Origin: Fidelibacterota bacterium
Lineage (GTDB): Bacteria; Fidelibacterota; Marinisomatia; Marinisomatales; TCS55
Direction: 5' to 3'
Length of the DNA: 64,000 nucleotides
Assembly: GCA_029936965.1 (NCBI GenBank)
Contig: JAPYRG010000002.1
Coordinates: 97,292-161,291, forward strand
Every line of letters starts with the position of its first letter. Within the stretch, counting starts at the first letter, position 1. Both the position numbers and the translations under genes were made by a program. The notes below the pieces were generated by a model. The model did no database searches. It was given only the letters and a program-made list of their open reading frames with translations, and had not been told where the DNA came from. Of the stretch, positions 5,121 to 58,822 are shown piece after piece.

Positions 5121-5261
5121 ATTTGTGCGGTTATCTAAAAGCTTATGGATAGACAAAAAAATTAAATTAAATTCGCCCCTATTCATTTTTTTATTAATAT
5201 ATTTTAAATATTTAGAGGTAAAAGAAATGGAATTGAACAATATTAACGGAGGTTTAATAAT

Positions 5262-5867
5262 ATGGTAGAATATTTTATTAATGGTGGCCCATTCATGTGG
5301 CCAATATTAATTTTGCTTCTTGCAGGATTTGGAATTGTTGGTGAAAGATTTTATTCGCTTATTTCATCATCAATCAATACATCCAAGTTTTTTGAAGATG
5401 TTGAAGAAACTCTTAATAATAATGGCGTGGAAGCTTCTCTAGAGCTGTGTAAAAATACAGAAGGTCCTGTTGCGAAAATATTTAGTGCAGGCCTATCGCG
5501 AATCGGTAGAGGTTTAGAAGAGGCTGAAAAAGCTATAGCTAACGCTGCATCTTTAGAAATGTCATTTTTAGAAAAAAATATGATTTGGCTTAATGCCGTA
5601 ATTACTATAGCTCCTATGCTTGGTTTTACTGGTACGGTAGCAGGGATGGTTAACGCATTCGATGCTATTGCAGCCGCTAATGATATTTCGCCTGCCGTTG
5701 TGGCGGGAGGTATTTCGCAAGCTCTTTTAACAACAGCGTTTGGATTAATTGTGGCTATGATTATTCAAATATTTCAGAACTTTTTTGTTTCAATGATCGA
5801 TAAACTAATATTAGACATGGAAGAGTACTCAGCTAAAATATTAGATAGACTATACGAATCAAAATAA
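5262..5867 (+). CDS. exbB: ExbB/TolQ-family proton channel subunit
   Basis: Inner-membrane proton channel component that, with ExbD and TonB, couples the proton motive force to outer-membrane receptors. The 201 residues contain three membrane segments: about 11-27, 110-132 and 148-172. The conserved MotA/TolQ/ExbB core reads APMLGFTGTVAGMVNAF followed by GGISQALLTTAFGLIVAM, the family signature. A GGAGG site nine bases upstream sets the start. Two exbD genes and tonB follow within 25 bases of each other, so this is a TonB energising module rather than a Tol-Pal locus (no TolB or Pal nearby). Likely clients are the two TonB-dependent receptors at 55-62 kb. Confidence 0.92.
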   Translation: MVEYFINGGPFMWPILILLLAGFGIVGERFYSLISSSINTSKFFEDVEETLNNNGVEASLELCKNTEGPVAKIFSAGLSRIGRGLEEAEKAIANAASLEMSFLEKNMIWLNAVITIAPMLGFTGTVAGMVNAFDAIAAANDISPAVVAGGISQALLTTAFGLIVAMIIQIFQNFFVSMIDKLILDMEEYSAKILDRLYESK

Positions 5868-5891
5868 GTCAAATTAGATTTTATAAATTAA

Positions 5892-6287
5892 ATGAGTAAG
5901 AAGCGCAGGTTTAAAGGTGGCGAAATCCCAACGTCATCTATGGCAGATATTGCATTTCTGCTGTTAATCTTCTTTTTGGTAACTACAACCATTGATATAG
6001 ATAAAGGGCTGGGGATTATCTTGCCAGCTGAGGGTGAAGAACTAGAGATTAAAAAAACAAATATTTTAAATTGCCTAATAAACTCACAGGGGAATGTTTT
6101 GCTTGGAGGTGACCCCATTGCGCTAAAAGACGTAAATAAGGAAATACGTAGGAGGTTAGCTGAGAATAATAAATTAATTATATCTGTGAAAGCTCATGAA
6201 AAAACAAAATATGGGGATTATGTTTCTTTAATTGATCAATTAAAGCGTGCGAATGCGACTAGAATTTCTATTGCAGATGCTGAATAA
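5892..6287 (+). CDS. exbD: ExbD/TolR-family protein, copy 1
   Basis: Partner of ExbB, with one membrane helix and a periplasmic domain. The 131-residue chain has the hallmark N-terminus: a cytoplasmic basic stretch, PTSSMADIAFLLLIFFLVTT as the only membrane segment (about 14-34) with the proton-binding Asp in MADIAF, then a small periplasmic alpha/beta domain ending at LKRANATRISIADAE. It starts 24 bases after exbB and its stop overlaps the next start by one base. The first of two exbD genes in tandem; duplicate ExbD is common in FCB-type bacteria and may allow a mixed dimer. Confidence 0.92.
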   Translation: MSKKRRFKGGEIPTSSMADIAFLLLIFFLVTTTIDIDKGLGIILPAEGEELEIKKTNILNCLINSQGNVLLGGDPIALKDVNKEIRRRLAENNKLIISVKAHEKTKYGDYVSLIDQLKRANATRISIADAE

Positions 6288-6697
6288 TGAAGCTTGATAG
6301 AAAAGTAAATATTAACAGTGATATTCCAACGGCTTCAATGCCAGACATTATTTTTATGCTTCTAATATTTTTTATGGTCACTACAGTTTTACGGGAATAC
6401 TCCGGTTTAGATATTGAACTACCTAAAGCAAAACGAATTCAAAAATTGAAATCGAAAAGGCATACTGCTCATATTTGGCTATCAAAACAAGGGCAGATAT
6501 CTATAGAGGATAAACTTATCCGATCTGAAAATATTAGGCATATCATGTACTCTAAGCGTGCTGCTGATCCTCAATTAACTGTTTCCATAAAGGCTGATAA
6601 ATCAGCTCGTATGGGCTTAGTTTCAGATATTCATACTGAACTTCGTAAAGCTGATGCGCTTATGCTAAATTATTCATCCAAAACTTCTGTAGAATAA
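6287..6697 (+). CDS. exbD: ExbD/TolR-family protein, copy 2
   Basis: Second ExbD, 136 residues, with the same plan as the first: PTASMPDIIFMLLIFFMVTT (about 14-35) containing the essential Asp, then a periplasmic domain. It shares the motif layout but little of the periplasmic sequence with copy 1, so the duplication is old. The ATG uses the last base of the preceding TAA, which implies translational coupling. TonB follows after seven bases. Confidence 0.92.
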   Translation: MKLDRKVNINSDIPTASMPDIIFMLLIFFMVTTVLREYSGLDIELPKAKRIQKLKSKRHTAHIWLSKQGQISIEDKLIRSENIRHIMYSKRAADPQLTVSIKADKSARMGLVSDIHTELRKADALMLNYSSKTSVE

Positions 6698-6704
6698 TAA
6701 TATA

Positions 6705-7328
6705 ATGTCAGATCAAGCAGCTATTTTATCCTTAAAGTTTAAGTATCCTGTAATTATACGTCTTGCAACTCTCTTTAGCATAATACTATTAATTTTAACA
6801 TTTTTAATTTATCCTAGGTATTTAGGATTACTTGAATTTGAAGATTTTGAGCTTCAAGAGATCATTATAGAAAATATTCCTCAAACTCAGCAAATAGAAA
6901 GACCTCCGCCACCTGCAAGGCCGTCTGTCCCTGTTGAATCTGAAGATGAAGACATTGCTGATGATTTAACTATTGAAGAAACTGATTTAGATAGTTTTGA
7001 GGCTTGGGATGCTCCACCTCCTCCCCCAGAAGGCCCAAGAGTAAAGTTTATTCCTTATGATGATCCTCCACAACCTTTATCATCTATTAGGCCAGTTTAT
7101 CCTGAAATTGCTCAAGAGGCAGGAATTGAGGGAACAGTTGTTGTTCAAGTTTTTGTTGATAACAGAGGGCGTGTTCAAGATACCTTAATTCTAAAAGGAA
7201 TCCCAAATACTGGATTAGATGAAGCAGCAGTAGCGGCTATTAAGAAAACTCGTTTTCGTCCCGCAAGGCAAAGGGAGAGGGCTGTTGGGGTGTGGATTTC
7301 TATACCCGTTAATTTTAGATTAAAATAA
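6705..7328 (+). CDS. tonB: TonB family energy transducer
   Basis: Periplasm-spanning energy transducer of 207 residues. A cytoplasmic N-terminus is followed by one membrane helix (about 18-37), an acidic and proline-rich linker (PPPPARPSVPVES, APPPPPEGP) and a TonB C-terminal domain (about 118-207), with YPEIAQEAGIEGTVVVQVFV, GLDEAAVAAIKKTRFRPARQ and a final strand VNFRLK. The linker is shorter than in enterobacterial TonB, so the periplasmic span must be modest. Last gene of the exb cluster, convergent with sdhB. The 44-base gap downstream shows no clear terminator hairpin. Confidence 0.93.
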   Translation: MSDQAAILSLKFKYPVIIRLATLFSIILLILTFLIYPRYLGLLEFEDFELQEIIIENIPQTQQIERPPPPARPSVPVESEDEDIADDLTIEETDLDSFEAWDAPPPPPEGPRVKFIPYDDPPQPLSSIRPVYPEIAQEAGIEGTVVVQVFVDNRGRVQDTLILKGIPNTGLDEAAVAAIKKTRFRPARQRERAVGVWISIPVNFRLK

Positions 7329-13066: not shown

Positions 13067-13094
13067 AAAAAAAAACCCCCTATATGGGGGTTTT
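13067..13094 (-). terminator. Rho-independent terminator closing the motor operon
   Basis: Read on the minus strand, AAAACCCCC, loop ATATA, GGGGG and then nine T form a GC-stem hairpin with a T tract 22 bases after the fliG-like stop. It is the best terminator in the left half of the window. Confidence 0.9.
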
Positions 13095-13115
13095 ATATAA
13101 AATAACAATAACTTG

Positions 13116-14054
13116 TTACTCAACCATTTCTCCGCCACCAATGAAATCTTCTAACTTAAAAACGCCATCTTTTTCCATCTGTTTTGCGGCCTGAATAATT
13201 CCTTTTCTAGCATTATCAACTTCTCTTTTAGATACTGCTCCTTCTACAGGTTCATACATAGCTTGTTTTTTCTGAGGTAAATTATTTTTAACTCTTGTAA
13301 CCACTTCTTCATCCATTCCTTTCATTGACATTGCAATAAGGTCAAGCTCTACTGAGTTCATAAGATCTCGTATTAAATTATCAGGAAAAAATTCGAAAAT
13401 ATCATCCCATTTAAGATGGTATTTTTTTATTTCTTCTGCTAAGGCAGGGGCGTCTCTTGATATAGCTTCTAAATATTTTGATTCATCCTCTGGATCCATT
13501 CCCCCCAAAATATCTGCAACATCTTTACCACCTCCCCTAGAAAAATCAACAGTTTTAGGTAAAAAATGTGATTTTTCCTGCAAATCTGAAGCAATACTTA
13601 CTACAGCTTCTAGGGGGACTTCATCAAGTGTACCCATTTCAATCAACACCCTACCTTTTTCCTCTGGATCTAGTCGTTCTAAAACTTTTGTTCGCTTCTC
13701 AGCATCAACCTGAGCCATGACAATAGCCTTTACTCTTGTATCTTCTGGCAAAACCATAGAAATTAACTGCTCATCTGTTAAATCGACTAGAAAAGCAAAT
13801 GGCTTCTTTGGCGCATCTTCTGCTCCCTCTTCAGACTGAAATTTTTCGCTTACAAAACTATAATAGAATTGCTCTATGACATGTTTTTTTACTTTAAAAG
13901 AAACACTATCCATATCTCGCGCAACAGATCGAACTTTTCGTATATCAGTCTTTGTTAATTCTTTTAATAAGGTTATTGACAAACCTTCTCCAAGAATATT
14001 AAATAATATAGCTACTTTTTGTAGACCAGATAATCTTTTTATATCAGTGATCAT
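13116..14054 (-). CDS. fliG: FliG-like rotor protein of a non-canonical motor
   Basis: Cytoplasmic rotor protein expected to sit on the FliF-like ring and receive torque from MotA. The 312 residues keep all three FliG parts: the N-domain opening LSGLQKVAILFNILGEG, the middle domain (about 86-170) and the C-domain beginning GGGKDVADILGGMDPEDE, with LIAMSMKGMDEE holding K245, which aligns with the torque-linked Lys264 of E. coli. The FliM-binding EHPQ motif of the middle domain appears as EDTR by my alignment, and no fliM or fliN is nearby. The acidic pair of the torque helix is only partly kept (EPVE instead of RDDL). An SD (AGAGG) lies seven bases before the ATG. Final gene of the operon, followed by a terminator. 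Confidence 0.88.
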   Translation of the reverse strand: MITDIKRLSGLQKVAILFNILGEGLSITLLKELTKTDIRKVRSVARDMDSVSFKVKKHVIEQFYYSFVSEKFQSEEGAEDAPKKPFAFLVDLTDEQLISMVLPEDTRVKAIVMAQVDAEKRTKVLERLDPEEKGRVLIEMGTLDEVPLEAVVSIASDLQEKSHFLPKTVDFSRGGGKDVADILGGMDPEDESKYLEAISRDAPALAEEIKKYHLKWDDIFEFFPDNLIRDLMNSVELDLIAMSMKGMDEEVVTRVKNNLPQKKQAMYEPVEGAVSKREVDNARKGIIQAAKQMEKDGVFKLEDFIGGGEMVE

Positions 14055-14066
14055 ATAATGACCTCT

Positions 14067-15500
14067 TTATTTCTTCTTTTTCTTCTTTTTATCAGAATCA
14101 TCTTCTTCTGGTTCCCCTGGTGGGGGCTCAGGTTCCGGAACAACATCATCCTCTAACCATTCTTTAACAATGCGAGTAGCAGTTTTTGGCTGTCCAACGC
14201 TCATTGAAACTACAGACTGTCGCATTTCACCGATTTCACCCCTAATAACATCGGGATCTTCTTGTGGCTCATTATTTGCTACAGGTGCACTTTTACGCTT
14301 TTTTTTTCTACGTAATGGTGGTGGATACGGCCATGGCATTGGAGGTTGTTGTGGGCTTTGTTTTTTCTTAAATAATAAAATCACCACTAATACGAGCAAT
14401 ACCACAACAAGCGCCCCTAAAATTGAAACCAAAATTATAAGAGCAGATGAGCTTTCTACATTTTCCATTTCTTGCTCAAGGCCCATTTGAACAGAATCAA
14501 GCATCGCAATTCTATTTGTTAATTGCGAATCTACGCGAGCGTCATTTGTGAATGATAATACATTCTTTAATGAAGTTATCTCCTCTTTTAATGCTCGTAA
14601 TTGTAATGAGTCCCGTAATAATGCTGTTTTTCTCTCATACTCAAATTTATCTGCGGCACCTCTTCGTTCTAAATTATTTAGTTGTTCTTTTAATTCTAGC
14701 AATGGACCGCTGATTTCCTTCTCAATAGATTTTGTTAATGCATCATCTCCTTCACCCGATTGAAGCATCTCTAACTTATCAGCAATATTCTTTAATAAAA
14801 CTTGTTCAGCGCTTTTTTCATCTCTTCTTTCCTTAAAAGACGCTGTCATAATGCTAAGGACATCCCCTCTTGTGCGATCGAACCTAGAGGCCACCATAAC
14901 TATTTGACGAATGTTTTCAATTAATTCTGGAGCAGCACCTTCTTGGAGAATAATACTGATTTGTAAACGTTTGACTGACGCTATAGCAGGCACTCTTTTT
15001 GTTAAAGTTTTAGATTGAACTCTTTCGGTTTTATTCCCAGGCTCTTGAATTGGCACAACCATTCCTGGTCCCTGCTGTCCTTCATTAGAAGACCCTTGAA
15101 CAACCTGAGGCTCTGCTTCAACTTCAAAATCAAAACCAGGGATTGGAAGTCCCATGCTAGAAAATTCAGATTCAGCATCAGAACCCCCCCTTGGGGCTGC
15201 TTCACCAATTATCGTTGTTAATTCTTCGAGAGCTGAGGCTTCATCATAAATTGCCCTGTCGCTAGGTATAATTGTGATTTTCTCTTCTTTCTCTCCAGTT
15301 ACTTCAATATTAACATCCACATCAATTACATATTTTTGATCATCGATAATCTTAGATAAAGCACTAGCTATTCTAGATCTTAGATCGCTTTCTACCATTA
15401 ACTTTTGTGTCAAATAGGATGAATTTTGCTGACCTAATAATAAGCTTAGGCTTAAAACAAATAACCAAATGAAAGGATATATTTTATGTCCTCTCTTCAT
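14067..15500 (-). CDS. fliF: FliF-like protein with RBM3 only, coiled-coil stalk and FliG-binding tail
   Basis: Membrane ring protein of 477 residues (canonical FliF about 550). It has a signal or anchor (9-24). It then has a region matching the RBM3/collar part of FliF (about 28-222): ESDLRSRIASALSKIIDD, VDVNIEVTGEKEE, a low-complexity Gly/Gln/Pro loop, then VKRLQISIILQEG and SRFDRTRGDVLSIM, which mirror the FliF RLSVAVVVD and GF..RGD segments. The RBM1 and RBM2 domains are missing. A long coiled coil (about 225-350) precedes the second membrane helix (353-377). The cytoplasmic tail carries MRQSVVSMSVGQPKTATRI and KEWLEDD, like the FliG-binding end of FliF (dP..vA..IR.W), then an acidic and poly-Lys end. 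The domain reading is by eye. Confidence 0.8.
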   Translation of the reverse strand: MKRGHKIYPFIWLFVLSLSLLLGQQNSSYLTQKLMVESDLRSRIASALSKIIDDQKYVIDVDVNIEVTGEKEEKITIIPSDRAIYDEASALEELTTIIGEAAPRGGSDAESEFSSMGLPIPGFDFEVEAEPQVVQGSSNEGQQGPGMVVPIQEPGNKTERVQSKTLTKRVPAIASVKRLQISIILQEGAAPELIENIRQIVMVASRFDRTRGDVLSIMTASFKERRDEKSAEQVLLKNIADKLEMLQSGEGDDALTKSIEKEISGPLLELKEQLNNLERRGAADKFEYERKTALLRDSLQLRALKEEITSLKNVLSFTNDARVDSQLTNRIAMLDSVQMGLEQEMENVESSSALIILVSILGALVVVLLVLVVILLFKKKQSPQQPPMPWPYPPPLRRKKKRKSAPVANNEPQEDPDVIRGEIGEMRQSVVSMSVGQPKTATRIVKEWLEDDVVPEPEPPPGEPEEDDSDKKKKKKK

Positions 15501-15539
15501 ATTCTACTCCTTTTGTAATTCTTAATATACTCATAATAA

Positions 15540-16370
15540 TCAACTATCGTTCCCCACATAACTTGTTGAGTGATGTGAAGGTTTTAAAAATGTGATCTCT
15601 ATTCTTCTGTTTCTACCTTTTTTTTCCGGTGTATCATTCAATTCCAAAACAGTGTTTCTATCTACCTTCTGTGTCAGGTTTTGAGCTTGACCCCTTGGAA
15701 CCCAATCAGCATATCCCGCAGCAACCAACCGGGTCGGGTTGACTCCCTGATCAATAACATTTCTTACCACTGCCGAGCCGCGTGCCGTAGATAGCTCCCA
15801 ATTTGATGGGAACAGTTTTTGATATGCTTTGGGCAACGCATCGCTATCTGTGTGCCCTGCAATTTCAATTTGAAAGATTGAATTCTTAATCTCAGGTACT
15901 ATTTTTTCTGATAATAATTTCTTTAGGCCTGGACTTATTCCAGCGCTTCCAGATCCAAAACTAAAATCACCGCTTATCTCTAATGTAACACCTTTAGAAC
16001 TAGTGGTGACTTCTACTGGCGGATCTCCTTTACTATCCTTCATTTCTGCTTCAATTTTTTCTACCATTTCATCCAAAGATGCTTTTACCTCTGCTAACTT
16101 TGTAGCTTTTTTTTCAAATTTCCCCTCAAGCTCTGCAGCGCCTTCTTTTTTAATTTTACTCCCTAATGATTTACCTGTAGAATTTGCCATCTCCATTATT
16201 TTTACTGGATCCATTGTAGATAGAGCAGCAAGAAGAACAAAAAAGGCAAAAAGAAGTGTCATCATATCTGCAAATGTGCCAAACCATCCTGGCAGACCTT
16301 CTTCTACGAGGCTCATTCCTTTTACTATGCCAGATTTAAAGGCCTTCTTTTCTCCTGATGTTTTAGCCAT
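15540..16370 (-). CDS. motB: MotB-like stator protein with OmpA-type peptidoglycan-binding domain
   Basis: Stator subunit of 276 residues. The N-terminus is basic; the single membrane helix (about 33-52) reads GTFADMMTLLFAFFVLLAAL with D35 in the position of the essential ion-binding Asp of MotB. A plug and linker helix region (53-120) follows, then an OmpA/MotB domain (about 130-262) with IEIAGHTDSDALP, NWELSTARGSAVVRNVI, RLVAAGYADWVP and the closing RNRRIEITF. All residues expected for peptidoglycan anchoring (Asp in GHTD, Arg in STARG and NRRIEI) are present. It starts six bases after the motA-like stop. The length is close to that of flagellar MotB, so the stator looks complete and able to work. 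Confidence 0.92.
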   Translation of the reverse strand: MAKTSGEKKAFKSGIVKGMSLVEEGLPGWFGTFADMMTLLFAFFVLLAALSTMDPVKIMEMANSTGKSLGSKIKKEGAAELEGKFEKKATKLAEVKASLDEMVEKIEAEMKDSKGDPPVEVTTSSKGVTLEISGDFSFGSGSAGISPGLKKLLSEKIVPEIKNSIFQIEIAGHTDSDALPKAYQKLFPSNWELSTARGSAVVRNVIDQGVNPTRLVAAGYADWVPRGQAQNLTQKVDRNTVLELNDTPEKKGRNRRIEITFLKPSHHSTSYVGNDS

Positions 16371-16376
16371 TAATTA

Positions 16377-17162
16377 TCATTCACCTTCTTTCTTCCATTC
16401 TGCAGGTGGTATGAATGAATTGAGTTTTTCCCTAACAATCAGGGGGTGTTTTTTCTGATGTATCAAGCGCGAAGCCTCCACCAGCAAACACTGAACTGTT
16501 GTATTCGCTGAAATTCTAACATTTATTTTATCAGCCATTGGTAAGAAAAATAGGTTAGCAAAAACAGCACCATAAAATGTAGTTATTAATGCTGCTGACA
16601 TGCCGGGGCCCAATGAATCCGCGCCACCTTCGCCACCAAAACCTGATAACATAATCACCAATCCAATTAATGTACCAACCATGCCCCAGGCCGGTGCCAT
16701 GACACCCATAGATTTAAAAAGGGATGACTGTGTTTTTTCACGTATTTCCCTGTATTCTATTCTTGTTTCTAATATTTCTGTTAATTCTTCTAATGAATAT
16801 CCATCAACTACCATTTGCACTCCATCGCGGAAGAAAAAATTATTAATTGAATCAACGTGCTTTTCCAAATCTGCTGCGCCTTTTCTACCAACGTCTGCGG
16901 CTTCAACAGCCTCATCAACAAGTGTTCCTAGTTTTATCTCGCCTCCCTTTAAAACTGCGCCCATTGCAGCACCTAATTTTAAAACATCAGAAAGAGGGAA
17001 GGCTACAGATATAGAAGCAAGCATCCCTCCAAATACAATTGCAAAACTTGGACCAGAGATAAATCCTCCAGTACTAGCACCAGCTTCAGCTGCAGCTAAA
17101 AATATACTACCGGCAATAGCTCCAAGTCCTAAAACAATACCTACTAAGGTTGCAATATCCAT
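16377..17162 (-). CDS. motA: MotA-like stator protein
   Basis: Ion-conducting stator subunit, 261 residues with four membrane helices (about 4-24, 37-57, 152-172, 187-208). The MotA signature is strong: MAPAWGMVGTLIGLVIML and GPGMSAALITTFYGAVFAN, with P157 and P185 matching the functionally important prolines of MotA. The cytoplasmic loop between helices 2 and 3 (58-150) includes the charged stretch ETRIEYREIREKTQ, where torque-generating residues sit in flagellar MotA. It resembles the shorter PomA/MotA group used by many bacteria. Proton versus sodium specificity cannot be read safely. It lies six bases after the barrel/TPR gene and six before motB. Confidence 0.93.
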   Translation of the reverse strand: MDIATLVGIVLGLGAIAGSIFLAAAEAGASTGGFISGPSFAIVFGGMLASISVAFPLSDVLKLGAAMGAVLKGGEIKLGTLVDEAVEAADVGRKGAADLEKHVDSINNFFFRDGVQMVVDGYSLEELTEILETRIEYREIREKTQSSLFKSMGVMAPAWGMVGTLIGLVIMLSGFGGEGGADSLGPGMSAALITTFYGAVFANLFFLPMADKINVRISANTTVQCLLVEASRLIHQKKHPLIVREKLNSFIPPAEWKKEGE

Positions 17163-17168
17163 AGAAAT

Positions 17169-18536
17169 TTACTCCCTAACGAAACTTGTTGTTTTTAATC
17201 TATTCTCATGTAACGCTTTTAAAATATTACGAACATCATCATATTCAGGATCCATCCTTAAGGCAAGATTCCAATTAATTGTTGCTCTCTGCACGTCTCC
17301 AAGTTTATAGTATATTGACCCTCGCCTAGCATACGCAAGAGCAAGGTTTGGATTTAAATCTAAAGCTGTTTCAACTTCTTGTAATGAGGCTCGATAATCA
17401 CCTCCATAAAAATATCTAAGCGATCTGGAAAGATGCCTCATGGCTTCATTCATATTTTTTTCGCCAACATTGCTCGATAGTTTTAATGAAGTAAGAGAAT
17501 CTTCAAGAAAATTGGAACGCTGCTCCATTGCAGATAACCTTACCATTAAATTTCTCATTTCATTATTTACCATCACTACAGAATCGCGAAGAGAACTAAC
17601 CACAAAACTTGCCATTGCTAAAGTAGAGTCAAATTGATCAGAGAATTCATCGTCAAAAACTGGAAAATCTCCTTCTGATAATGGAGGCATAGGCCCTGAT
17701 ACGTCTCCAAGCACACGCCTAGCTCTTCTTGGAACAGCCATATCAAATCCAATGGTTAATGCTGGATGACCAGGCCAATAACGAAGCTTCCAGCTTGGCA
17801 GTTTATCTATGTGGGTGAACCCAATGTTTAGGCGATAATCCGAGGTAAGGGGGATGCGGAGTCCCACATTGATTCCTATACCATCAAATTCACCCACAAA
17901 ATCCAAACCACCCCATTTATTAAAAAATGGAGTGTTTAAATGAAACCCTGCAAATACTCCCGCAGGCGTACCTGTAGAATCAGTAACTGGAAGCGAATCT
18001 TGTGCGCCAAAACCCCCAGTACCAAAACCTAAAAACGTCTGTAAATTATATGATCCCAAAGTTTTTGCGCTACTAACAACAGCAAAAAACGATAACTGTT
18101 TAGGTGATAAGCTTAAGCCGCTTTCACTTTCAGAATTTTTAAATACTATATCTTGTAATCCAATAGATACGCTTACGTCATTGTAAGTATAAACTCTTTG
18201 CTGTAAATGAAAACCAAATTCAACAGGAGGGGCGTATGTAGATACATCTAGATTGGCTAGATTAGTTGTATCAGCAGTTTGTACAGAAGAAAAACCAACA
18301 GAAAAGTTTTTTCCAGCTTCCATATCAAAGAAAATTCCTGCAGTACTATTAAAAGGGCTAAGGTTGTGGAACTCTGTTCCAAACCCTGTTCTGAATAAAT
18401 ATGGAGATCTACCAACTGTGCTAAATGGTATTTTCATCATAACACCTGGTCGCGTATATGCTACACGGGTAGCTGCAAAGACTGTATTAAATAGACTAAA
18501 TAGAACGGTGGCGGATAATAATAGTGCCCTAATCAT
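17169..18536 (-). CDS. Outer-membrane beta-barrel with C-terminal coiled coil and TPR domain
   Basis: A 455-residue exported protein: signal peptide (1-21, ending VFAAT), a barrel-like region (about 25-270) of alternating strands such as VSVSIGLQDIVF, LDFVGEFDGIGINVGLRI and RLNIGFTHI, a Pro-rich hinge (PMPPLSEGDFPVF), a coiled coil (about 305-350) and TPR units (about 363-440), with ALDLNPNLALAYARRGSIYY and LGDVQRATINWNLALRMDP. The layout suggests an outer-membrane anchor with a periplasmic TPR arm, a natural partner for the peptidoglycan-bound stator or the FliF-like stalk. Its start overlaps the upstream stop by four bases and motA follows after six bases. I know of no flagellar equivalent. 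The barrel call is from pattern only. Confidence 0.7.
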   Translation of the reverse strand: MIRALLLSATVLFSLFNTVFAATRVAYTRPGVMMKIPFSTVGRSPYLFRTGFGTEFHNLSPFNSTAGIFFDMEAGKNFSVGFSSVQTADTTNLANLDVSTYAPPVEFGFHLQQRVYTYNDVSVSIGLQDIVFKNSESESGLSLSPKQLSFFAVVSSAKTLGSYNLQTFLGFGTGGFGAQDSLPVTDSTGTPAGVFAGFHLNTPFFNKWGGLDFVGEFDGIGINVGLRIPLTSDYRLNIGFTHIDKLPSWKLRYWPGHPALTIGFDMAVPRRARRVLGDVSGPMPPLSEGDFPVFDDEFSDQFDSTLAMASFVVSSLRDSVVMVNNEMRNLMVRLSAMEQRSNFLEDSLTSLKLSSNVGEKNMNEAMRHLSRSLRYFYGGDYRASLQEVETALDLNPNLALAYARRGSIYYKLGDVQRATINWNLALRMDPEYDDVRNILKALHENRLKTTSFVRE

Positions 18537-19429
18537 TGATATATTTCCGCGCGCTTAATTTCCATGCGTGCGAGCTTAGCATACTCACTTTTTGGATAAT
18601 TATTTACTAATTTATTTAAAACAACTAAAGATTTATCTAACTCTCCTCTTTTTCGAAATAATAACCCTTTTTTAATCAACGCATCATCAATATGGTCAGA
18701 ATTATTATTTTCAATCACCATATCTAGATAGATCATTGCATTATCAATATCACCAAGATGCTGATAAGAATCAGCCATCCAATAGATAACATTACCCGAT
18801 ATATTTTTATCAGTATCTATTAAATGTAAATTTGCAAAATATTTTATTGCTAATTGAAAATTATCCTGTTGATAAGCAAAGACTCCTGCCATATAGTCCT
18901 TGCTATTAAATTCTTTAATTAACTTTTTAGATTGCTTCTCATTTTTTGATTTCATAGCTACGGTAGACTTCACTTGATCGTTTAGCGGTTCTATTAAATG
19001 CGCTGTTGGCTTAACATCAGGATCGATCCCCACTTCATCTACCATACTTGGTCTTTTATTAATATCAGTGATCATGTTCTTTAACAATTGATTTTCTTGT
19101 TGTAAATCAAACAATTTCTCTTGGAATGAATTTTCTAATTTTGCAATTCGATTATTGATTCGCTCCAGGCTGGCTAACATTTCTGAAGATGCAGCCATAT
19201 AAATTGATCCACTTTTGGCTTTTTTTACCTGAAAATTAATTTCTTCACTTGGGGCCTCAACTAATCTATTATATTCTTCATCTCCCGTAGAAGGTTCTAT
19301 AACTATCCCCAAATCAAGAAAAAACACTTCTGATATCGTAGCATTTGATTGTGCAAAAATAGTATTAAATAAAAACAGGAGAATAATTAATCTGCGAAAA
19401 TAAATCACTTTTATTCGTATTCCTCCCAA
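18533..19429 (-). CDS. CpoB/YbgF-like periplasmic coiled-coil and TPR protein
   Basis: A 298-residue exported protein: signal peptide (about 8-27, LIILLFLFNTIFAQ), a coiled coil (about 82-118, with LERINNRIAKLE and LFDLQQENQLLKNMI) and a C-terminal TPR array (about 172-296) including YQQDNFQLAIKYF, IYWMADSYQHLGDIDNAMIY and LDKSLVVLNKLVNNYPKSEY. Trimer-forming coiled coil plus TPR is the plan of CpoB (YbgF) of the Tol-Pal system, which also couples an ion-driven motor to the envelope. Its 5' end overlaps the upstream gene by 19 bases and its 3' end overlaps the barrel gene by four, so the three are tightly coupled. The CpoB comparison is structural, not proof of shared function. Confidence 0.7.
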   Translation of the reverse strand: MGGIRIKVIYFRRLIILLFLFNTIFAQSNATISEVFFLDLGIVIEPSTGDEEYNRLVEAPSEEINFQVKKAKSGSIYMAASSEMLASLERINNRIAKLENSFQEKLFDLQQENQLLKNMITDINKRPSMVDEVGIDPDVKPTAHLIEPLNDQVKSTVAMKSKNEKQSKKLIKEFNSKDYMAGVFAYQQDNFQLAIKYFANLHLIDTDKNISGNVIYWMADSYQHLGDIDNAMIYLDMVIENNNSDHIDDALIKKGLLFRKRGELDKSLVVLNKLVNNYPKSEYAKLARMEIKRAEIYQ

Positions 19430-20598
19430 TCTATAACATATGAGTATCCTATAAATGATCCAAATGCATGCGGAACATATAATTCAAAAGCTCCTACAGC
19501 GCCAGGAAGAAGCGTAGCATCTGTAGTAATTCCTGAATCAAATGTATGATATGTGCCTCTGGCAAAAGTAGTGAGGGTTTTTGTTTCACCACTCCAGTTT
19601 TTACGGAAAACAAAATCCATCTTTACAAAATCTGCACGTCGGCCTCCAATATTTTTCACTTCTCCTGTGAAAATTGTATTTCCTTGATTATCTTTTTTTT
19701 CTGTTATATTTCCTACTAAAACACAGTTGGCTGCATATTTTCTACCTGCACTCCTATTTAATGGGTCAGCAGATGTATATTTTGGTTCAGATAAGCGAGG
19801 CATCGGTGGTGGAGAATAACTATCCCGAACTTGTTCAGGTACATACTCTTGAGTGTCTTCTGTTATCACATTATCTATCACCCGAACAATATTATCACGC
19901 TTAATAATAAGATAGCCTACTAGAGTTTCTACTTTAAGCTCTGATTCATCTTGATACACAATCTTACCAAAAATTGTGCTACCATTTTTCATAATAATCT
20001 CTTTTGAATAAATTGCTAGAGGGTTTACCCACATTTTACTCAATGATTTTAAGTTTTCTAACTCGGAACTAAGATGCTTAACCTCAGCAGATAGTTTTTT
20101 TATTTCAAAACTAAGTTCATTCATGATATAGGTGGACCCAGCATCTCCAGGTTCATCCTCTGCGGCAAGTTCGGGGACCAAGGGGCCATCATTAATTGGG
20201 GGCGCAACTGCAGCAACGCTTTGCTTTTTTACTGGAGCTTCTTCTTTCACCACATTGGCTGGCGCAGTTTGCTGTAACGAAACCTGTAGATCTTTTATAT
20301 CATCTTCACTAACAGCAACACGGACATTTGCTTTTCCAAGCTCCCCTCCATCTACCCGGATAAAATACTGACCTGATAGAACTTTTTTAAATTTGAATTT
20401 CCCATTTCCTTTTGCTTTAGTGCTTTGCACTTCAAGCTCGCTTTTATCTAATAATAAAACGGTTACTTTTCCGGCTTTGTCTCCATTGCTGTCAAATACT
20501 TGTCCGGAAACACCATAGTCTTTTGCTTGTAAAAAGCTAAATATTAAGAGATAAGATACAGCTAGAAGAATGCTATTTTTTGGTCTGTGGATTCTCAT
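19411..20598 (-). CDS. Multi-domain periplasmic protein opening the motor operon
   Basis: A 395-residue exported protein. After a signal peptide (1-25, ending SFLQAKD) comes a carboxypeptidase-regulatory-like beta-sandwich (about 28-108: VSGQVFDSNGDKAGKVTVLL, GNGKFKFKKVLSGQYFIRVD). A Pro/Ala-rich linker, a short coiled coil (about 155-188), an Sm-like beta domain (about 196-240: IIMKNGSTIFGKIVYQDESE) and a C-terminal FxLYD-like domain (about 285-395, with GEVKNIGGRRADFVKMDFVF) follow. Each is a protein-contact module; there is no enzyme motif. It is the first gene after the promoter at 20697-20725, with GAGG before the start. A scaffold in the periplasm is the simplest reading. Domain names are by eye. 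Confidence 0.65.
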   Translation of the reverse strand: MRIHRPKNSILLAVSYLLIFSFLQAKDYGVSGQVFDSNGDKAGKVTVLLLDKSELEVQSTKAKGNGKFKFKKVLSGQYFIRVDGGELGKANVRVAVSEDDIKDLQVSLQQTAPANVVKEEAPVKKQSVAAVAPPINDGPLVPELAAEDEPGDAGSTYIMNELSFEIKKLSAEVKHLSSELENLKSLSKMWVNPLAIYSKEIIMKNGSTIFGKIVYQDESELKVETLVGYLIIKRDNIVRVIDNVITEDTQEYVPEQVRDSYSPPPMPRLSEPKYTSADPLNRSAGRKYAANCVLVGNITEKKDNQGNTIFTGEVKNIGGRRADFVKMDFVFRKNWSGETKTLTTFARGTYHTFDSGITTDATLLPGAVGAFELYVPHAFGSFIGYSYVIDWEEYE

Positions 20599-20696
20599 GC
20601 CAATATTCCTCGGTTTTAATTAATAAAAGCAATTATAATATAGTTATGTCTTAATCATGCTTTTTTCTTCCCAATAATTGATTCCCACCGAAGGTA

Positions 20697-20725
20697 AATA
20701 TATTACAGTATACCCGCGCTATCAA
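20697..20725 (-). promoter_or_regulatory. Sigma70-like promoter of the motor operon
   Basis: On the minus strand TTGATA (20720-20725), a 17-base spacer and TATATT (20697-20702) form a near-consensus promoter about 98 bases before the first start at 20598. It lies in the only sizeable gap of the region (20599-20813), which otherwise shows nothing I can name. Confidence 0.6.
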
Positions 20726-20813: not shown

Positions 20814-21425
20814 TTATTTCCAAAAATTATCAAAGGTCTTTTTCTTCCTATATGCAGCATCTTTAGAAGCTTCTGCCTCTTCTCGCAATCCCTCGGGCAA
20901 TGTTTTACTTAATGAGTCTTCATAGGCTTCAATAATTAAATCATAATCTTTGTTATCCTTTTTCTCATAAGATTTAGCTATCCAATAACTTGCGAGACCA
21001 TCTTCTTGATCAACCATAGATGCTTTTGAAAAAAATTCTATTGCATCCCACAAAGATGATTTACTTCCTTTTTTGTACAATGATAATCCTTCAAGCATTA
21101 ATAGCTCATAGCGTACCGTTTTATTCATAGGATCAATAGCTAATACCTTTTTGTACTCTTTTATTGCTGTCTCTCTATTACCAGAACTTTCTGCTTTTCT
21201 CGCAATATTTATATGCGCCGTGGACAAAATTGATACAAATTCTGGGCGCCTTTCTTTACTTAACGCAAGCAAAGAATCTTGTTTTGATACAACTTTTTCT
21301 GGCTCCGTGATTGATAATTTTTTCAAGCTTGGCTTAGATGGTGCGCAGCTTTCTAATATTATGAGAAAGAAGAATACACTTAGAAATAAACCGGGCATAT
21401 TTAAGAAAATGAATCTATCCTTCAT
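20814..21425 (-). CDS. TPR lipoprotein
   Basis: A 203-residue lipoprotein. The signal ends in LIILESCAPS, a lipobox with the modified Cys at about residue 27. The mature part holds TPR-like helices (about 62-180): ARKAESSGNRETAIKEYKKV, LAIDPMNKTVRYELLMLEG, AIEFFSKASMVDQEDGLASY and IAKSYEKKDNKDYDLIIEAY. It overlaps the end of the hydroxylase gene by 11 bases. It sits just upstream of the motor promoter, on the same strand, but outside that unit. A link to the motor is possible because that operon is also rich in TPR proteins, but the overlap ties it to the hydroxylase transcript. The start at 21398 (MPGLFLSV) is an alternative. Confidence 0.7.
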   Translation of the reverse strand: MKDRFIFLNMPGLFLSVFFFLIILESCAPSKPSLKKLSITEPEKVVSKQDSLLALSKERRPEFVSILSTAHINIARKAESSGNRETAIKEYKKVLAIDPMNKTVRYELLMLEGLSLYKKGSKSSLWDAIEFFSKASMVDQEDGLASYWIAKSYEKKDNKDYDLIIEAYEDSLSKTLPEGLREEAEASKDAAYRKKKTFDNFWK

Positions 21426-22347
21426 AAAAAAATAAGCTTTTATTTTTATAATATGCTTTATACATATCTTCCATGGAGTCTATGACATAGTATCTTTCTT
21501 GAAGATTGCTAAAATCATATCTAGTCATAATTATTTCTTCTATATCAAATGGTAAAAACTTTGATCTTTTGGATTTTCCTTTAGCGCACTGGATAATATT
21601 ATTTGTTTCATCGCATGATGATATAATTCCCGCTCCATAAATTTCATAATCTATATCATTGTTGTTTCTACGATAACTGTCAGCGTTTCCATTATTTTTT
21701 ATTACGCCAAATTCATATGTCCACCATGCAAAATTCTGTAATCGTTTTAAATTATGAGCTACCAACTCTGGACCAAGTTTTCTAGTGTCAACAATTATCT
21801 CATGACCAAGCCTCCCTACATCTGCTAAAAATTCTGCAAATTCTTTATTCATTAAAAAAGGCACATGTGCTTGTATATCATGAAAAATATCTGGTTCTGG
21901 TGTATAGCCTTCCTCATTTTTAATTGTCCGGTCATGATATTTTTTATCAAATCGAGGAGATTTTCTTATAATATCTGTAACAGGAAATTGCTTCTTTGCA
22001 TTAATTTCAAAAAATAATTCTTCATCTAAAAAGCCAGCGACTGGCAGTAAAGACCATCCAGTTGAATTCTTAATTATTGGAGAGATGGCTTTAAAATCAG
22101 GAAAACGATCCCGAGGAATTGGCAATGATTTTATGCCTAGTAAATATTCTTTTGATGAATATTGATCTAAAACTAATTCTAAATTAATATATAAATCTGA
22201 CCAAATCTGATTCTCAAGATTAGTAATTGAAGAATAATTCTGATTAATAAGGTATTGATCATCCTTTCCAAAAATATATATACCTTCAATAGTCTGTGTT
22301 TTGAGATTGCTAAACAAGTAATCGTATTTTTTATTATCTATAGCCAA
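21415..22347 (-). CDS. phhA: Biopterin-dependent aromatic amino acid hydroxylase (phenylalanine 4-monooxygenase type)
   Basis: Non-haem iron monooxygenase turning phenylalanine into tyrosine with tetrahydropterin and oxygen. In the 310 residues the family signature TPEPDIFHDIQAHVPFL gives iron ligands H156 and H161, and WWTYEFGVI gives E212. LPIPRDRFPDF and IYGAGIISSCDETN are other conserved blocks. The usual DxFGH/DIFGH step reads DIQAH here. It has about 40 extra N-terminal residues over compact bacterial PhhA but no ACT regulatory domain. No pterin carbinolamine dehydratase (phhB) is next to it. It follows the Smr gene after 31 bases. The class is secure; phenylalanine versus tyrosine or tryptophan as substrate is not. 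Confidence 0.88.
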   Translation of the reverse strand: MAIDNKKYDYLFSNLKTQTIEGIYIFGKDDQYLINQNYSSITNLENQIWSDLYINLELVLDQYSSKEYLLGIKSLPIPRDRFPDFKAISPIIKNSTGWSLLPVAGFLDEELFFEINAKKQFPVTDIIRKSPRFDKKYHDRTIKNEEGYTPEPDIFHDIQAHVPFLMNKEFAEFLADVGRLGHEIIVDTRKLGPELVAHNLKRLQNFAWWTYEFGVIKNNGNADSYRRNNNDIDYEIYGAGIISSCDETNNIIQCAKGKSKRSKFLPFDIEEIIMTRYDFSNLQERYYVIDSMEDMYKAYYKNKSLFFYEG

Positions 22348-52081: not shown

Positions 52082-53056
52082 TTATAGGGTATAATTCAAT
52101 CCAAAGCGCATCACACTATCAAATACACCAAAATCTGTGTAAGAAACATCCACACCAAATCCTGCCATTTTAAAACCGACACCTAGATTAATGCCTGCTT
52201 CATCTGAAGGGGTTACATAACCAGCTCTTATGTCCATCATCTCCATTACACTATATTCCAAACCAACTCGATATGTTGTAAAATAATCACGTGGACGTTC
52301 ATTAACAAAAGATACAGATAGGTTATTTGCCACATCAGCAGATACACCCATTCTAAATGTCAGCGGTAACTCAAAAGCCTCCTCAGCGTACTTCAAGCTC
52401 TGAGAAAAATTTCTAGCACTCATTGCAAGCATAAGATTTTTCCAATCCATCTGATACATGAGTCCAAAATCATAAGCTGGTGTGCTCATATCTAATTTCT
52501 TTGTACCACCATCTGCATCCACTGTAGCAACGCCTAGATCTTCACTAGCAATTTTGACATGCAAACCAACACTAAATCTATCCGTTGGAGCAAATGCATA
52601 ACCTAAGCCAACCGCAGTAGCTGTAGGGCTAAACGTTCCATTATCAGTATATCCAGATTCTGCGGAACTACGTACAGCTCCTTGAAGGTCTCCATAATTA
52701 ACACTCATAAATGAAAGACCAAGAACGCCTGCGTTTGATGCATAAGCAAATCCTGCTGCTTGATATGATATTTCAGCAATCCATTGCGTCTGGCCAAAAG
52801 ACACATTCATGCCTTCTACTCGGGCCATTCCAGCTGGATTATAAAACAGAGAAGAAGCGCCTCCTTGTTTTGCGGTAATAGCATCTCCAAGAGCGGCTGC
52901 TCGAGCATCCGGCGAGAAGCTTAGAAACTTCATCCCCGTCTGCGCTAATTTATCAGTACCAAGATCATCATCATCATCATCTTGCGCTATTGTAAATGAG
53001 CACAAAAGAGTTAGGATGAGAACGGGTATTAAATTAAATGTATGTTGTTTTTTCAT
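52082..53056 (-). CDS. PorV-like (UPF0164) outer-membrane protein
   Basis: A 324-residue outer-membrane barrel with signal peptide (1-25, ending FTIAQ). Next come an acidic run of six Asp and the family motif SFSPDARAAALGDAITAKQG followed by GASSLFYNPAGMARVEG, the hallmark of PorV/LptO and UPF0164 proteins. C-terminal strands include AGFGVDVSYTDFGVF and end RFGLNYTL. PorV shuttles type IX cargo from the translocon to the attachment complex. Being directly downstream of a sorting-domain protein gene (31 bases), this one may serve that protein. Other UPF0164 members act as fatty-acid-type porins, so the shuttle role is not certain. Confidence 0.85.
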   Translation of the reverse strand: MKKQHTFNLIPVLILTLLCSFTIAQDDDDDDLGTDKLAQTGMKFLSFSPDARAAALGDAITAKQGGASSLFYNPAGMARVEGMNVSFGQTQWIAEISYQAAGFAYASNAGVLGLSFMSVNYGDLQGAVRSSAESGYTDNGTFSPTATAVGLGYAFAPTDRFSVGLHVKIASEDLGVATVDADGGTKKLDMSTPAYDFGLMYQMDWKNLMLAMSARNFSQSLKYAEEAFELPLTFRMGVSADVANNLSVSFVNERPRDYFTTYRVGLEYSVMEMMDIRAGYVTPSDEAGINLGVGFKMAGFGVDVSYTDFGVFDSVMRFGLNYTL

Positions 53057-55266: not shown

Positions 55267-58200
55267 CTAGAAAGAAACCCTTACGCCAACACTTATAGTT
55301 CTTGGATTAAGGAACGTTCTATGCCATTCATTAGGCATATCAATATATGCTTTATCGCTTTTCACCTTACTAACAAAGCTAGAGCTTGCTGTTCCCCAAT
55401 CTGTTCCATTCCAATGATACCAATCGCCGGTATCGTGCACATAATACAGAACATCTCCTGTTTGAATCAGTGCGGGTAACTCTTCCGTCGCGGGAAGATT
55501 AGCCGCTGTAGCCACAACTTCAATAGGAACAAACGCTACATCACGCTCTCTAAAAGTGCCAGGTCTATCGTCTCCTACAATATTATTATATGTCATTTCA
55601 GTATCAGCTACTTCATCCCAAAAATCTGAAGGCATATGTAGAGAGGTCATATAATTATCCCAATCATCTCCACCGGTCTGGCCTTCAAATGGGCCCCCGT
55701 GAGGATTATAAGGGCTAAAGTACATGTATTTCAGACCCAAGAGATTTTGTACATCAGCAAAAACCATAACTCTGCTACCACCAACATTAAAATTCTTACT
55801 AAGACGTGCATTCATAAATAAGAAATCTTTCATCTGTACATTATTATTCACGCCTGGAATTGTTGCGCCACCTGGACCAACCCATGTAAAGTGTCTACCA
55901 GCACGCCATCCGCCATTTAATGTTACGCGAAAATCAGCCAATGGGCCCATGCTCTTTGGTGCAACATACTCTAGATTCGCTGATGCAAATGGTTCTGCTA
56001 CCGGCTTAATCTGATAATGATCAGTCGCTGTTCTTTCGTATTCTGTTTGAGTTACATCATTCTCATACTGAGAACCCCAGCCAAAATTTCCTTGACTTCG
56101 AACTGAATAGGTGTAATTAAAGTATCCTGTTACACTCCCCATATTCTTGCTAAGAGAAAATTCTAAACCACGAGTGTCGCTATAGTTATAAGGAACAGAT
56201 CTATTATATGATACTTCCGAATCGATACTTTGATACCATACAGTCTTTGGCTGCAGCGAACTATCTTTATAATACCCACCTACACGAAGCAAGTATGCGT
56301 CTTGAAGCGCCTGTTCATAACCAACCTCATAACTAACTGTTTGTGGCATTGGATTGTTAGGATCGCCAATCTGATGCACTTCTCCACGCCAAGCCTGCCA
56401 AATCATAAAGCTTTCCTGAGCAGTTAATTGCTGACGATAGGAACCATAATTAAAATACAATTTGCTATTCACTGTAATTGGAAAAGCTATACGAATTTTT
56501 GGATTTAGAGTTATTTGAGTCTCGGCATCGCTGGAAGTAATATCGCTAAAACGCTCATCGCCAACATCCCCTTTTTCTTTAGCCGTCAATTCACGTGCAT
56601 AATCATCATAATCCCACCATTTTGTGTTAGGATTATAATAATCCACGCTAAGTCCCAGCGTTGCAATCATTCCTTTAAACTCTAATTTATCTTCAGCATA
56701 AAGACCTGCTTGAGTGGGGGTTTTCTTCCATCTTTGTGAACCACGTTCAACGTGAACAATAACAGAGTCGCTTGAACCATAATCCATATCATAATCATAT
56801 AATGACATCCAGGCGCCCGCATTAAGCTGATTTGTGCTGTTTAATTGTGATGTATAATCAAAATTAATATTTGTACTAGAAACCTTTGAATCATCGCGAC
56901 CTCTAGCCCAATGGCCTCCCAAACGAGACCCGCTTCCAGGGTTACTCATACCATCTGAAGTCCAACCCCATGGGGTATATACTAATGAGTCAGCCCCAGT
57001 TCCACCGGTCCCATAAAGTAGTTTTATTACATCTGGTACATCGCTAGACGTTTCCCCAGGGGGAGCGTTGGAACCAAGTCTACGCGAATTTGGCCCTGTT
57101 TTAAACGTTTCTGAATTCATTGAAAACCCTACATTATAGTATGTTTTCGCATTTACTGTATTAGTAAAAGTAGCCCCCATAATATCAGTATCATAATCCG
57201 TAACCGCATAACGGTCCCAAGCAAAGATTACACTTTTACCTACATGATCGCCATTTTGGTTAATTAAAGTTTCCGAAGGAGATATGCCTTGGTTGCTATT
57301 AAAAACCAATGTTGAGTTCGCACTACCTGCGCCCCAGGGGTACAGAGGCGTTCCGCCACGCTGTGGATATGGCACATGTAGCATGTCCCACGCTTCGTGT
57401 GCTGCGCCTTCTTGGTGTGAGGTTTTATAAAAAGCCATCAACTTCATTGAAGAATTGAGGTCATACATAACTTTTGCATGTACATTATTTTCCTTAAATG
57501 AGCTACGCGCCTGTGGGTAAAAATATGGCTCCTGGTTACTCAAATAAGAAACAAGGAATCTCAATCCAGTGCTACCTAACGGCATTCCAAATGTAGCATC
57601 AATAGATTGAAAGGCATCTTTAACCTCTGTATCCTTGCGATGATGCCAATCAAACACTTCTAGCCATTGACTTTCGTCTAAAGTTGCGGCATTACCTGTG
57701 GCGCCATCAATAGTAGCTTGCCAGCCGGTAAATGTAGGGTACTGTGCTTGGTAATATTGATCCCAACCGCCTCCATCTGTGCCGTTTGTTTTCACAGCTG
57801 AATCTTTATAAGGCTTCCACCAGTACGCATTAATATCTTTAACGCTTTTCCCAAAAGACATTGAACTAGCTGGAGATTGGTTTATTAGAACATCTAAAAT
57901 CATTCTATCTCGGGGATCTTTTGTTACAATATTAATTGCACCACCTCGAGCGTTAGCTACACCTGAACCCAAGCCCCCTGTTTGAATCTGCAATTCATCG
58001 ACGGAGGTTAATGCTATAGCCGTTTGAGGGGTCCCGTCTCTTCCACCGCGAGTGCTAATGCCATCAACAACAAAAGCTGTTTCATTAATACCAGAGCCCC
58101 TGATAACCATGCCGGGTTCAACACCCGCTTGTTGGCTAATAAAATCTCCAACAGATCTAACGGGTATATTTTCAATATCTCCACCACTTACATTAATTAC

Positions 58201-58605: not shown

Positions 58606-58613
58606 TTTGTAGT

Positions 58614-58618
58614 CCTCC
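58614..58618 (-). promoter_or_regulatory. Shine-Dalgarno site fixing the receptor start at 58605
   Basis: GGAGG on the minus strand lies eight bases before ATG 58605. The in-frame upstream start at 58647 would put 14 residues containing no signal features in front of the signal peptide, so 58605 is used. Confidence 0.85.
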
Positions 58619-58662
58619 ATGTGAAATCGTTTAATATTAGTTATCAATTAATTAATTCTTCT

Positions 58663-58676
58663 CGCGCCAAGGCGCG
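58663..58676. repeat. GC-rich inverted repeat in the receptor leader
   Basis: CGCGCC, AA, GGCGCG form an inverted repeat about 60 bases before the receptor start, a striking GC block in AT-rich DNA. It could be an operator or a leader hairpin. On the minus strand no T run follows, so it is not a terminator for the upstream receptor gene. Confidence 0.5.
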
Positions 58677-58822
58677 TTTTCCTGACGATTTTGGCTTGGC
58701 TAGCTACCATCAAAAGCAAATGTCGCAAATATTTTTGCTAAGAGTCAAGAAAAAATTATTTTTATCTTTCTTATGCAATATTGCGTTATTAGATAAATAA
58801 GTGGGGATTAAGACATCATTAA

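What the first reader, a model, noticed from the sequence alone, without database searches (positions are those of the whole stretch)
13067..20725. Flagellum-derived rotary motor operon without a flagellum
One seven-gene unit encodes the rotor pair (FliG- and FliF-like) and the stator pair (MotA- and MotB-like) together with three envelope proteins that have no flagellar counterpart: an outer-membrane barrel/TPR protein, a CpoB-like coiled-coil/TPR protein and a beta-domain scaffold. No export gate, rod, hook, filament, FliM/FliN or chemotaxis gene occurs in the unit or elsewhere in the window. Known ion-driven envelope motors without flagella (GldL/M of type IX secretion, Agl-Glt gliding, Exb-Ton, Tol-Pal) use MotA/B-type stators but no FliF/FliG rotor. 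I do not recall a described system with this combination. A gliding, surface-transport or secretion-driving motor is a reasonable hypothesis.
Basis: partly seen in the sequence, partly recalled or inferred. Interest (0 to 1): 0.92.

Follow-up and report, generated by a model that had tools for sequence, protein, structure and literature searches.

The report
Flagellar-type motor without a flagellum
Most sampled genomes of one bacterial phylum carry a conserved gene cluster for the ring, rotor and power units of the flagellar motor joined to a predicted outer-membrane barrel, often where no flagellar export gene was found, and it likely forms a rotary motor that turns something at the cell surface other than a flagellum.

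Summary
Seven tightly packed minus-strand genes (13116-20598) encode FliG-, FliF-, MotB- and MotA-type proteins plus a barrel/coiled-coil/TPR protein, a CpoB-like protein and a beta-domain protein. The genome is a Marinimicrobia MAG; no FlhA, FliM/FliN or rod-hook domain was found in it. Of 149 phylum genomes, 105 have both motor FliG and barrel, 5 one of them, 39 neither; 81 of the 110 with either have no FlhA, 29 have it. Gene order is the same in 60 of 60 loci as far as contigs reach. Motor FliGs form one 100/100-supported group apart from flagellar FliGs. The FliF-like protein keeps the ring-forming RBM3/collar domain and a FliG-binding-type tail but no RBM1/2 match; FliG lacks the EHPQ FliM-binding motif (0 of 43); MotA scores with MotP/PomA, not TolQ/ExbB. 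Inference: a self-standing, ion-driven rotor coupled to an outer-membrane barrel. The output is unproven. Gliding or surface transport is my first choice. Driving type IX secretion is attractive (SprA and sorting tails near-universal, GldL/GldM not detected, though without a ringing control), but motor-less genomes outside one reduced family keep many type IX cargo proteins.

The parts
13116..14054 (-). motor FliG (312 aa), FliG N, M and C domains
   Evidence: Pfam; alignment A1 of 23; profile vs PDB FliG 1lkv E 5.7e-36
13731..13745 (-). position of the EHPQ FliM-binding motif, here EDTRV; EHPQ in 0 of 43 motor FliGs, 19 of 20 flagellar FliGs of the same phylum, 5 of 10 from other phyla
   Evidence: place checked
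13221..13280 (-). rewritten torque-helix segment LPQKKQAMYEPVEGAVSKRE
14067..15500 (-). FliF-like ring protein (477 aa): N-terminal hydrophobic helix or signal peptide, RBM3, long helices, TM, FliG-binding-type tail; no RBM1/RBM2 match
14832..15437 (-). RBM3/beta-collar domain, residues 22-223 (loop about 101-160 not confident)
14361..14447 (-). predicted second transmembrane helix, residues 352-380
   Evidence: AF2 helix; hydrophobic letters
14148..14255 (-). cytoplasmic tail helices with PxxAxxIxxWL, matching the tail of flagellar FliF of the same phylum
15540..16370 (-). MotB-like stator with D35 and OmpA-type core invariant in 22 of 22
16377..17162 (-). MotA-like stator of flagellar MotP/PomA class
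17169..18536 (-). predicted outer-membrane barrel + coiled coil + TPR protein (455 aa)
17730..18401 (-). predicted beta-barrel, residues 46-269
   Evidence: AF2 model; Foldseek best FapF 5o68 7.1e-06, next a designed 12-strand barrel
17403..17645 (-). predicted 81-residue helix, residues 298-378
17208..17396 (-). TPR tip, residues 381-443, highly conserved
18533..19429 (-). CpoB-like coiled-coil/TPR protein, 0-2 copies in relatives
19411..20598 (-). CarboxypepD_reg + coiled coil + small beta domains; the C-terminal part is what matches in distant relatives
13072..13094 (-). terminator-like hairpin closing the unit

Best explanation
The unit encodes what is likely a self-standing ion-driven rotary motor of the cell envelope, built from flagellar-type stator, rotor and ring proteins and predicted to pass its torque to an outer-membrane barrel protein rather than to a flagellum. 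Predicted working: MotA/MotB-like units, held to peptidoglycan by the OmpA domain of the MotB-like protein, conduct ions and push a ring of the FliG-like protein. FliG would be held by the tail helix of the FliF-like protein, whose transmembrane helix and long helices carry a periplasmic ring of RBM3/collar domains above the inner membrane. The barrel protein would reach down from the outer membrane with an 81-residue helix and a TPR tip, and the beta-domain and CpoB-like proteins would help bridge or guide the shaft. With no FliM/FliN match in this genome it would probably not switch direction as a flagellum does. My choice for the output is movement of surface-exposed proteins, that is gliding or surface transport. 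Shown here: gene content, conservation, domain identities, motifs, co-distribution, no match of the tested flagellar parts in this genome. Predicted: folds. Inferred and untested: assembly, rotation, coupling, output.
For: Homology of all four motor parts. MotA family: 22 of 22 members match MotP/PomA/MotA models; TolQ is matched by 7 of 22, far more weakly. FliF RBM3 fold and FliG-binding-type tail. Same order in 60 of 60 loci as far as contigs reach (L013 shows FliG alone; seven of the 60 loci supplied query sequences). Barrel and motor FliG: both in 105, one in 5, neither in 39 of 149 genomes (from lists copied by hand). 81 of those 110 have no FlhA over the cut-off, including G016, a one-contig 2.79 Mb genome. 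Motor FliGs are one group, 100/100. EHPQ in 0 of 43 motor FliGs. FlhA, FliM/FliN-C and Flg_bb_rod give no match in the own genome, with 4 of 14 control genomes ringing each time.
Against: No experiment, no complex prediction. The FliF model is weak overall (mean pLDDT 66.7, pTM 0.31; RBM3 and some helices are confident) and its sequence profile reaches PDB FliF only at E 0.0023. The acidic pair of the canonical FliG torque helix is not kept: one falls on a proline and the other in a 3-residue gap, so torque transfer must differ in detail. EHPQ is itself missing in 5 of 10 flagellar FliGs from other phyla (EYPQ or ELP there), so its loss alone does not show loss of FliM. The barrel's place in the outer membrane rests on its model only. 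In L029 the barrel hit is only the TPR tail and no beta-domain gene was found; the barrel frame is split in L022 and the FliF frame in L003 and L072, by mutation or assembly error. 39 of 149 genomes lack the unit by my thresholds, so it is dispensable.
Confidence: 0.55

Rival explanations
1. The motor is the missing engine of type IX secretion in this phylum: its turning ring does the work that GldL/GldM and the PorK/PorN hub do in Bacteroidota.
For: SprA in 148 of 149 genomes (145 over cut-off) and in the own genome; sorting-tail proteins in 149 of 149; GldL over cut-off in 0 of 149 (6 weak), GldM in 0 of 149, GldK over cut-off in 0 of 149; PorV-family proteins in the own genome. In Bacteroidota the PorKN hub is proposed to rotate and to carry PorG, to which it is disulfide-linked (PMC12635249, passages read).
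Against: The 39 motor-less genomes still have tail proteins: 2-4 in the 13 reduced genomes of family f2, but 11 to at least 36 (the counting cap) in the other 26. No type IX gene family recurs in the conserved unit (read by eye). GldL and GldM searches had no ringing control, so their absence is not proven.
Confidence: 0.2
2. The unit is an envelope-maintenance machine of Tol-Pal type (outer-membrane constriction or lipid balance), using a rotary instead of a pulling motor.
For: CpoB-like, TPR and peptidoglycan-binding parts.
Against: The stator is of flagellar class, not TolQ/ExbB; some families lack the unit in every sampled genome; the CpoB-like gene is not constant.
Confidence: 0.1
3. It is a remnant of a lost flagellum kept without motor function, or its stators serve a flagellum.
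For: Flagella likely occur in the phylum (FlhA over cut-off in 34 of 149).
Against: Phylum-wide conserved order, own FliG group with 100/100 support apart from flagellar FliGs of the phylum, constant link to a barrel, 81 of 110 without FlhA.
Confidence: 0.05
4. The barrel is an export pore (its closest solved fold is the amyloid exporter FapF) and the motor gates or drives export of a filament or polymer through it.
For: Foldseek best hit is FapF 5o68, E 7.1e-06.
Against: A designed 12-strand barrel ranks second, so the fold match is not specific; TM-score over the query is only 0.30; no cargo gene recurs in the unit.
Confidence: 0.1

Closest known systems
Bacterial flagellar motor (MS-ring FliF, FliG, MotA/MotB)
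   Same: FliF RBM3/collar fold, FliF tail motif, FliG three-domain layout, MotA of MotP/PomA class, MotB with MotB_plug and OmpA domains
   Different: No RBM1/2 match, no EHPQ motif, altered torque helix, no FlhA, FliM/FliN or rod-hook domain match in this genome, fixed barrel partner
Type IX secretion/gliding motor of Bacteroidota (GldL/GldM driving GldK/GldN, with PorG/SprF)
   Same: Ion-driven motor plus periplasmic ring plus outer-membrane protein (analogy; PMC12635249 passages)
   Different: Stator and ring are of another family; GldL, GldM and GldK not detected over cut-off in 149 genomes, without a ringing control for the first two
ExbB/ExbD/TonB and TolQ/TolR/Pal
   Same: Related proton-channel superfamily; an ExbB-ExbD-ExbD-TonB set lies in the same window at 5262-7328 (the second ExbD by eye)
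   Different: Those have no FliF/FliG rotor (recalled); the unit's MotA matches TolQ/ExbB only weakly
Agl-Glt gliding of Myxococcus (recalled)
   Same: Ion-driven motor pulling envelope proteins for surface movement
   Different: AglRS is filed with the non-flagellar stators in PMC12505986 (passages); no rotor ring (recalled)
Amyloid exporter FapF
   Same: Predicted barrel of similar fold; FapF also has a periplasmic coiled coil (recalled)
   Different: FapF has no TPR tip and no motor (recalled)

Membership tests
Bacterial flagellum | FliF ring, FliG rotor and MotA/MotB stator present | tested here: met
   FliF only in part (RBM3 and tail)
Bacterial flagellum | Type III export gate (FlhA) | tested here: not met
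   PF00771 no match in the own genome, controls rang in 4 of 14
Bacterial flagellum | C-ring FliM/FliN | tested here: not met
   PF01052 no match in the own genome, controls rang in 4 of 14; EHPQ lost
Bacterial flagellum | Rod and hook proteins | tested here: not met
   PF00460 no match in the own genome, controls rang in 4 of 14
Bacterial flagellum | Filament (flagellin) | not tested
   no search of the genome for flagellin
Type IX secretion/gliding motor | GldL/GldM motor pair | tested here: inconclusive
   GldL 6 of 149 weak, 0 over cut-off; GldM 0 of 149; no control genome rang
Type IX secretion/gliding motor | SprA translocon in the same genome | tested here: met
   625 bits; but on another contig, not in the unit
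Type IX secretion/gliding motor | GldK/PorK hub | tested here: inconclusive
   101 of 149 with part matches, in the listed rows mostly to the second half of the profile; 0 over cut-off; 4 controls rang, none over cut-off
Tol-Pal / Exb-Ton energizers | Stator of TolQ/ExbB class | tested here: not met
   22 of 22 MotA members match flagellar models, TolQ 7 of 22 and weak; PDB MotA 1.6e-65 vs TolQ 2.2e-4

The most novel reading that the evidence does not exclude
The flagellar rotor and stator exist as an independent trans-envelope rotary machine, a class of its own beside flagella and type IX secretion: a minimal FliF-RBM3/FliG ring turned by MotAB spins outer-membrane barrel proteins and powers surface movement, or type IX export in place of GldL/GldM, in most of the phylum Marinimicrobia.
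Probability: 0.35. Interest if true: 0.95.

Novelty: new variant of a known kind. Interest (0 to 1): 0.87.

Why it matters
What use is half a flagellar motor? A 2025 survey asks it in those words and found rotor proteins (FliG, FliM or FliN) without filament in 11% of non-motile species, which it took to raise the possibility of another function (PMC12199754, passages). This unit gives that question a concrete, conserved and testable object: rotor, ring and stator without a detected export gate, fixed to a barrel partner. If true it would show that torque can be taken from a FliF/FliG ring without a rod or hook, help define the minimal rotor, and give a candidate engine for surface movement or type IX export in a largely uncultured phylum in which GldL/GldM were not detected.

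Tried and rejected
Rejected: degenerate flagellum (separate FliG group, order kept across the phylum); TolQ/ExbB-type stator. Sole type IX engine was demoted to a rival (motor-less genomes keep cargo). Led nowhere: spread outside the phylum. Against plasmids the barrel gave 4 cyanobacterial records, none covering 80% of it, annotated as TPR proteins or TPR kinase/protease. Literature: (open-access PMC only); no listed row describes this unit by title and abstract start, but only the first 15-25 rows of 84 to 2,295 papers were shown. Papers opened were seen as passages, not whole texts; PMC5596340 reports Por-type sorting-tail genes in SAR406; PMC11700989 was a false lead (genus Marinimicrobium). 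The promoter scan gave no more than chance. VIA table: a family not listed there is not excluded. Rows left out of counts: FliG fragments in G059, G069 and G123 and canonical FliGs (about 93-121 bits) were not counted as motor FliG; the line was E < 1e-40 and E < 1e-70 for the barrel, so G059 and G069, counted among the 39, may carry the unit. In one search only the best hit per gene, on the FliG strand and within 12 kb, was used.
Full report
Observation. Seven minus-strand ORFs run from 20598 down to 13116 with gaps of at most 39 nt or short overlaps. Pfam and NCBIfam assign the four motor parts clearly: FliG N, M and C domains; FliF C-terminal domain only; MotB plug plus OmpA; MotA. The other three are a barrel/TPR protein, a CpoB-like TPR protein and a protein with a CarboxypepD_reg domain. 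A terminator-like hairpin follows FliG at 13094-13072; promoter-like matches are at chance level.

Where it lives. The window is part of a 2.14 Mb, 96.65% complete genome in 50 contigs. Relatives of its FliG in the species-genome collection are Neomarinimicrobiota/Marinimicrobia in 38 of 40 loci by record title, the other two being titled 'bacterium' and 'FCB group bacterium'.

No flagellum found in this genome. FlhA, FliM/FliN C-terminal domain and Flg_bb_rod give no match; each search rang in 4 of 14 control genomes. FliI, FliP and flagellin were not searched.

Conservation. I compared 60 loci: 40 named and 20 from 20 G-handle genomes of the phylum (overlap between the two sets not checked). 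As far as contigs reach, the order is beta-domain, CpoB-like, barrel, MotA, MotB, FliF, FliG in 60 of 60 (L013 shows FliG alone). Of the 40 loci with at least 8 kb upstream of FliG, 40 have barrel, MotA, MotB and FliF matches, 39 the beta-domain gene, 35 the CpoB-like gene (seven of the 60 loci supplied query sequences and match themselves). Irregular: in L029 the barrel match is only the TPR tail; the barrel frame is split in L022 and the FliF frame in L003 and L072. In 149 phylum genomes of at least 80% completeness, motor FliG (E < 1e-40) is in 106 and the barrel (E < 1e-70) in 109; 105 have both, 1 FliG only, 4 barrel only, 39 neither. FlhA over cut-off is in 34 of 149: 29 of the 110 genomes with the unit have it, 81 do not. 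G016 is a single 2.79 Mb contig with motor FliG and barrel and no FlhA match, so a gap in assembly is an unlikely cause there. The unit is missing in all 13 sampled genomes of the reduced family f2 (0.7-1.0 Mb) and in several other lineages; two of the 39 (G059, G069) hold FliG fragments that may belong to it.

A separate rotor. A tree of 73 FliGs (43 motor, 20 flagellar from the same phylum, 10 from plasmid-borne genes of other phyla) puts all motor FliGs on one side of a branch with 100/100 support, and the phylum's flagellar FliGs with those of other phyla. The root is at the midpoint, so I cannot say which came first. EHPQ, the FliM-binding motif (name recalled), is in 0 of 43 motor FliGs, 19 of 20 flagellar FliGs of the phylum and 5 of 10 of the others. 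The torque-helix segment is rewritten to LPQKKQAMYEP, invariant in the 23 sequences of A1 and present in 24 of all 43, with a gap where canonical FliG has its acidic pair.

Stator. MotA members match MotP/PomA/MotA models in 22 of 22 cases and PDB MotA at 1.6e-65, TolQ at 2.2e-4. An R..E pair (R93, E100, kept in 90% or more of 22) aligns near the charged stator pair R90/E98 of E. coli (named in PMC12505986), with one residue fewer between them. MotB keeps D35 and the OmpA core in 22 of 22.

Outer-membrane side. The barrel protein model (pLDDT 78.7, pTM 0.51) shows about twelve strands at 46-269, an 81-residue helix and a TPR tip; the best fold matches are FapF, a designed 12-strand barrel and TPR proteins. 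The TPR tip is among the best conserved stretches, as expected of a docking surface.

Output. SprA is in 148 of 149 genomes and sorting tails in 149 of 149, but GldL, GldM and GldK give no match over cut-off in any (GldL and GldM searches rang in no control, so this is not proof of absence). That makes the unit a candidate engine for type IX export or gliding, and the Bacteroidota proposal of a rotating hub that carries PorG (PMC12635249, passages) fits. I therefore put gliding or surface transport first and secretion second; neither is tested.

Literature. Seven searches of open-access papers showed no row whose title or abstract start describes such a unit; several lists were cut after 15-25 rows. 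PMC12199754 (passages) reports rotor proteins without filament in 11% of non-motile species and leaves their function open.

Noticed in passing
window 5262-7328, + strand: ExbB, two ExbD-like ORFs and TonB in a row: a second, separate ion-driven energizer of the outer membrane about 6 kb from the unit (the second ExbD, 6287-6697, judged by eye).
   Followed up: partly
G000:C8:21262-27174 (L120): SprA-type translocon (2072-aa frame) with an ORF weakly like the PorU/PorZ tail and a PorV-family ORF downstream in the same genome.
   Followed up: partly
window 52082-53056, - strand: PorV/PorQ family protein (NF033709, 183 bits) beside large ORFs at 55267-61789 that look like TonB-dependent receptors by eye.
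   Followed up: partly
149 phylum genomes: Type IX translocon and sorting tails are near-universal in Marinimicrobia while no Bacteroidota-type motor was detected over cut-off; what energizes export in motor-less lineages is unexplained.
   Followed up: partly
window 20814-22347, - strand: A TPR lipoprotein-like ORF (20814-21425) and a biopterin-dependent aromatic amino acid hydroxylase-like ORF (21415-22347, PF00351 1.2e-26) lie upstream; relatives recur upstream of the unit on the same strand in 10 and 7 of 40 named loci.
   Followed up: no
L029 (CP070787.1), 5147-6711: Barrel gene seems reduced to its TPR tail with an opposite-strand ORF in its place, while MotA, MotB, FliF and FliG are present.
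   Followed up: no
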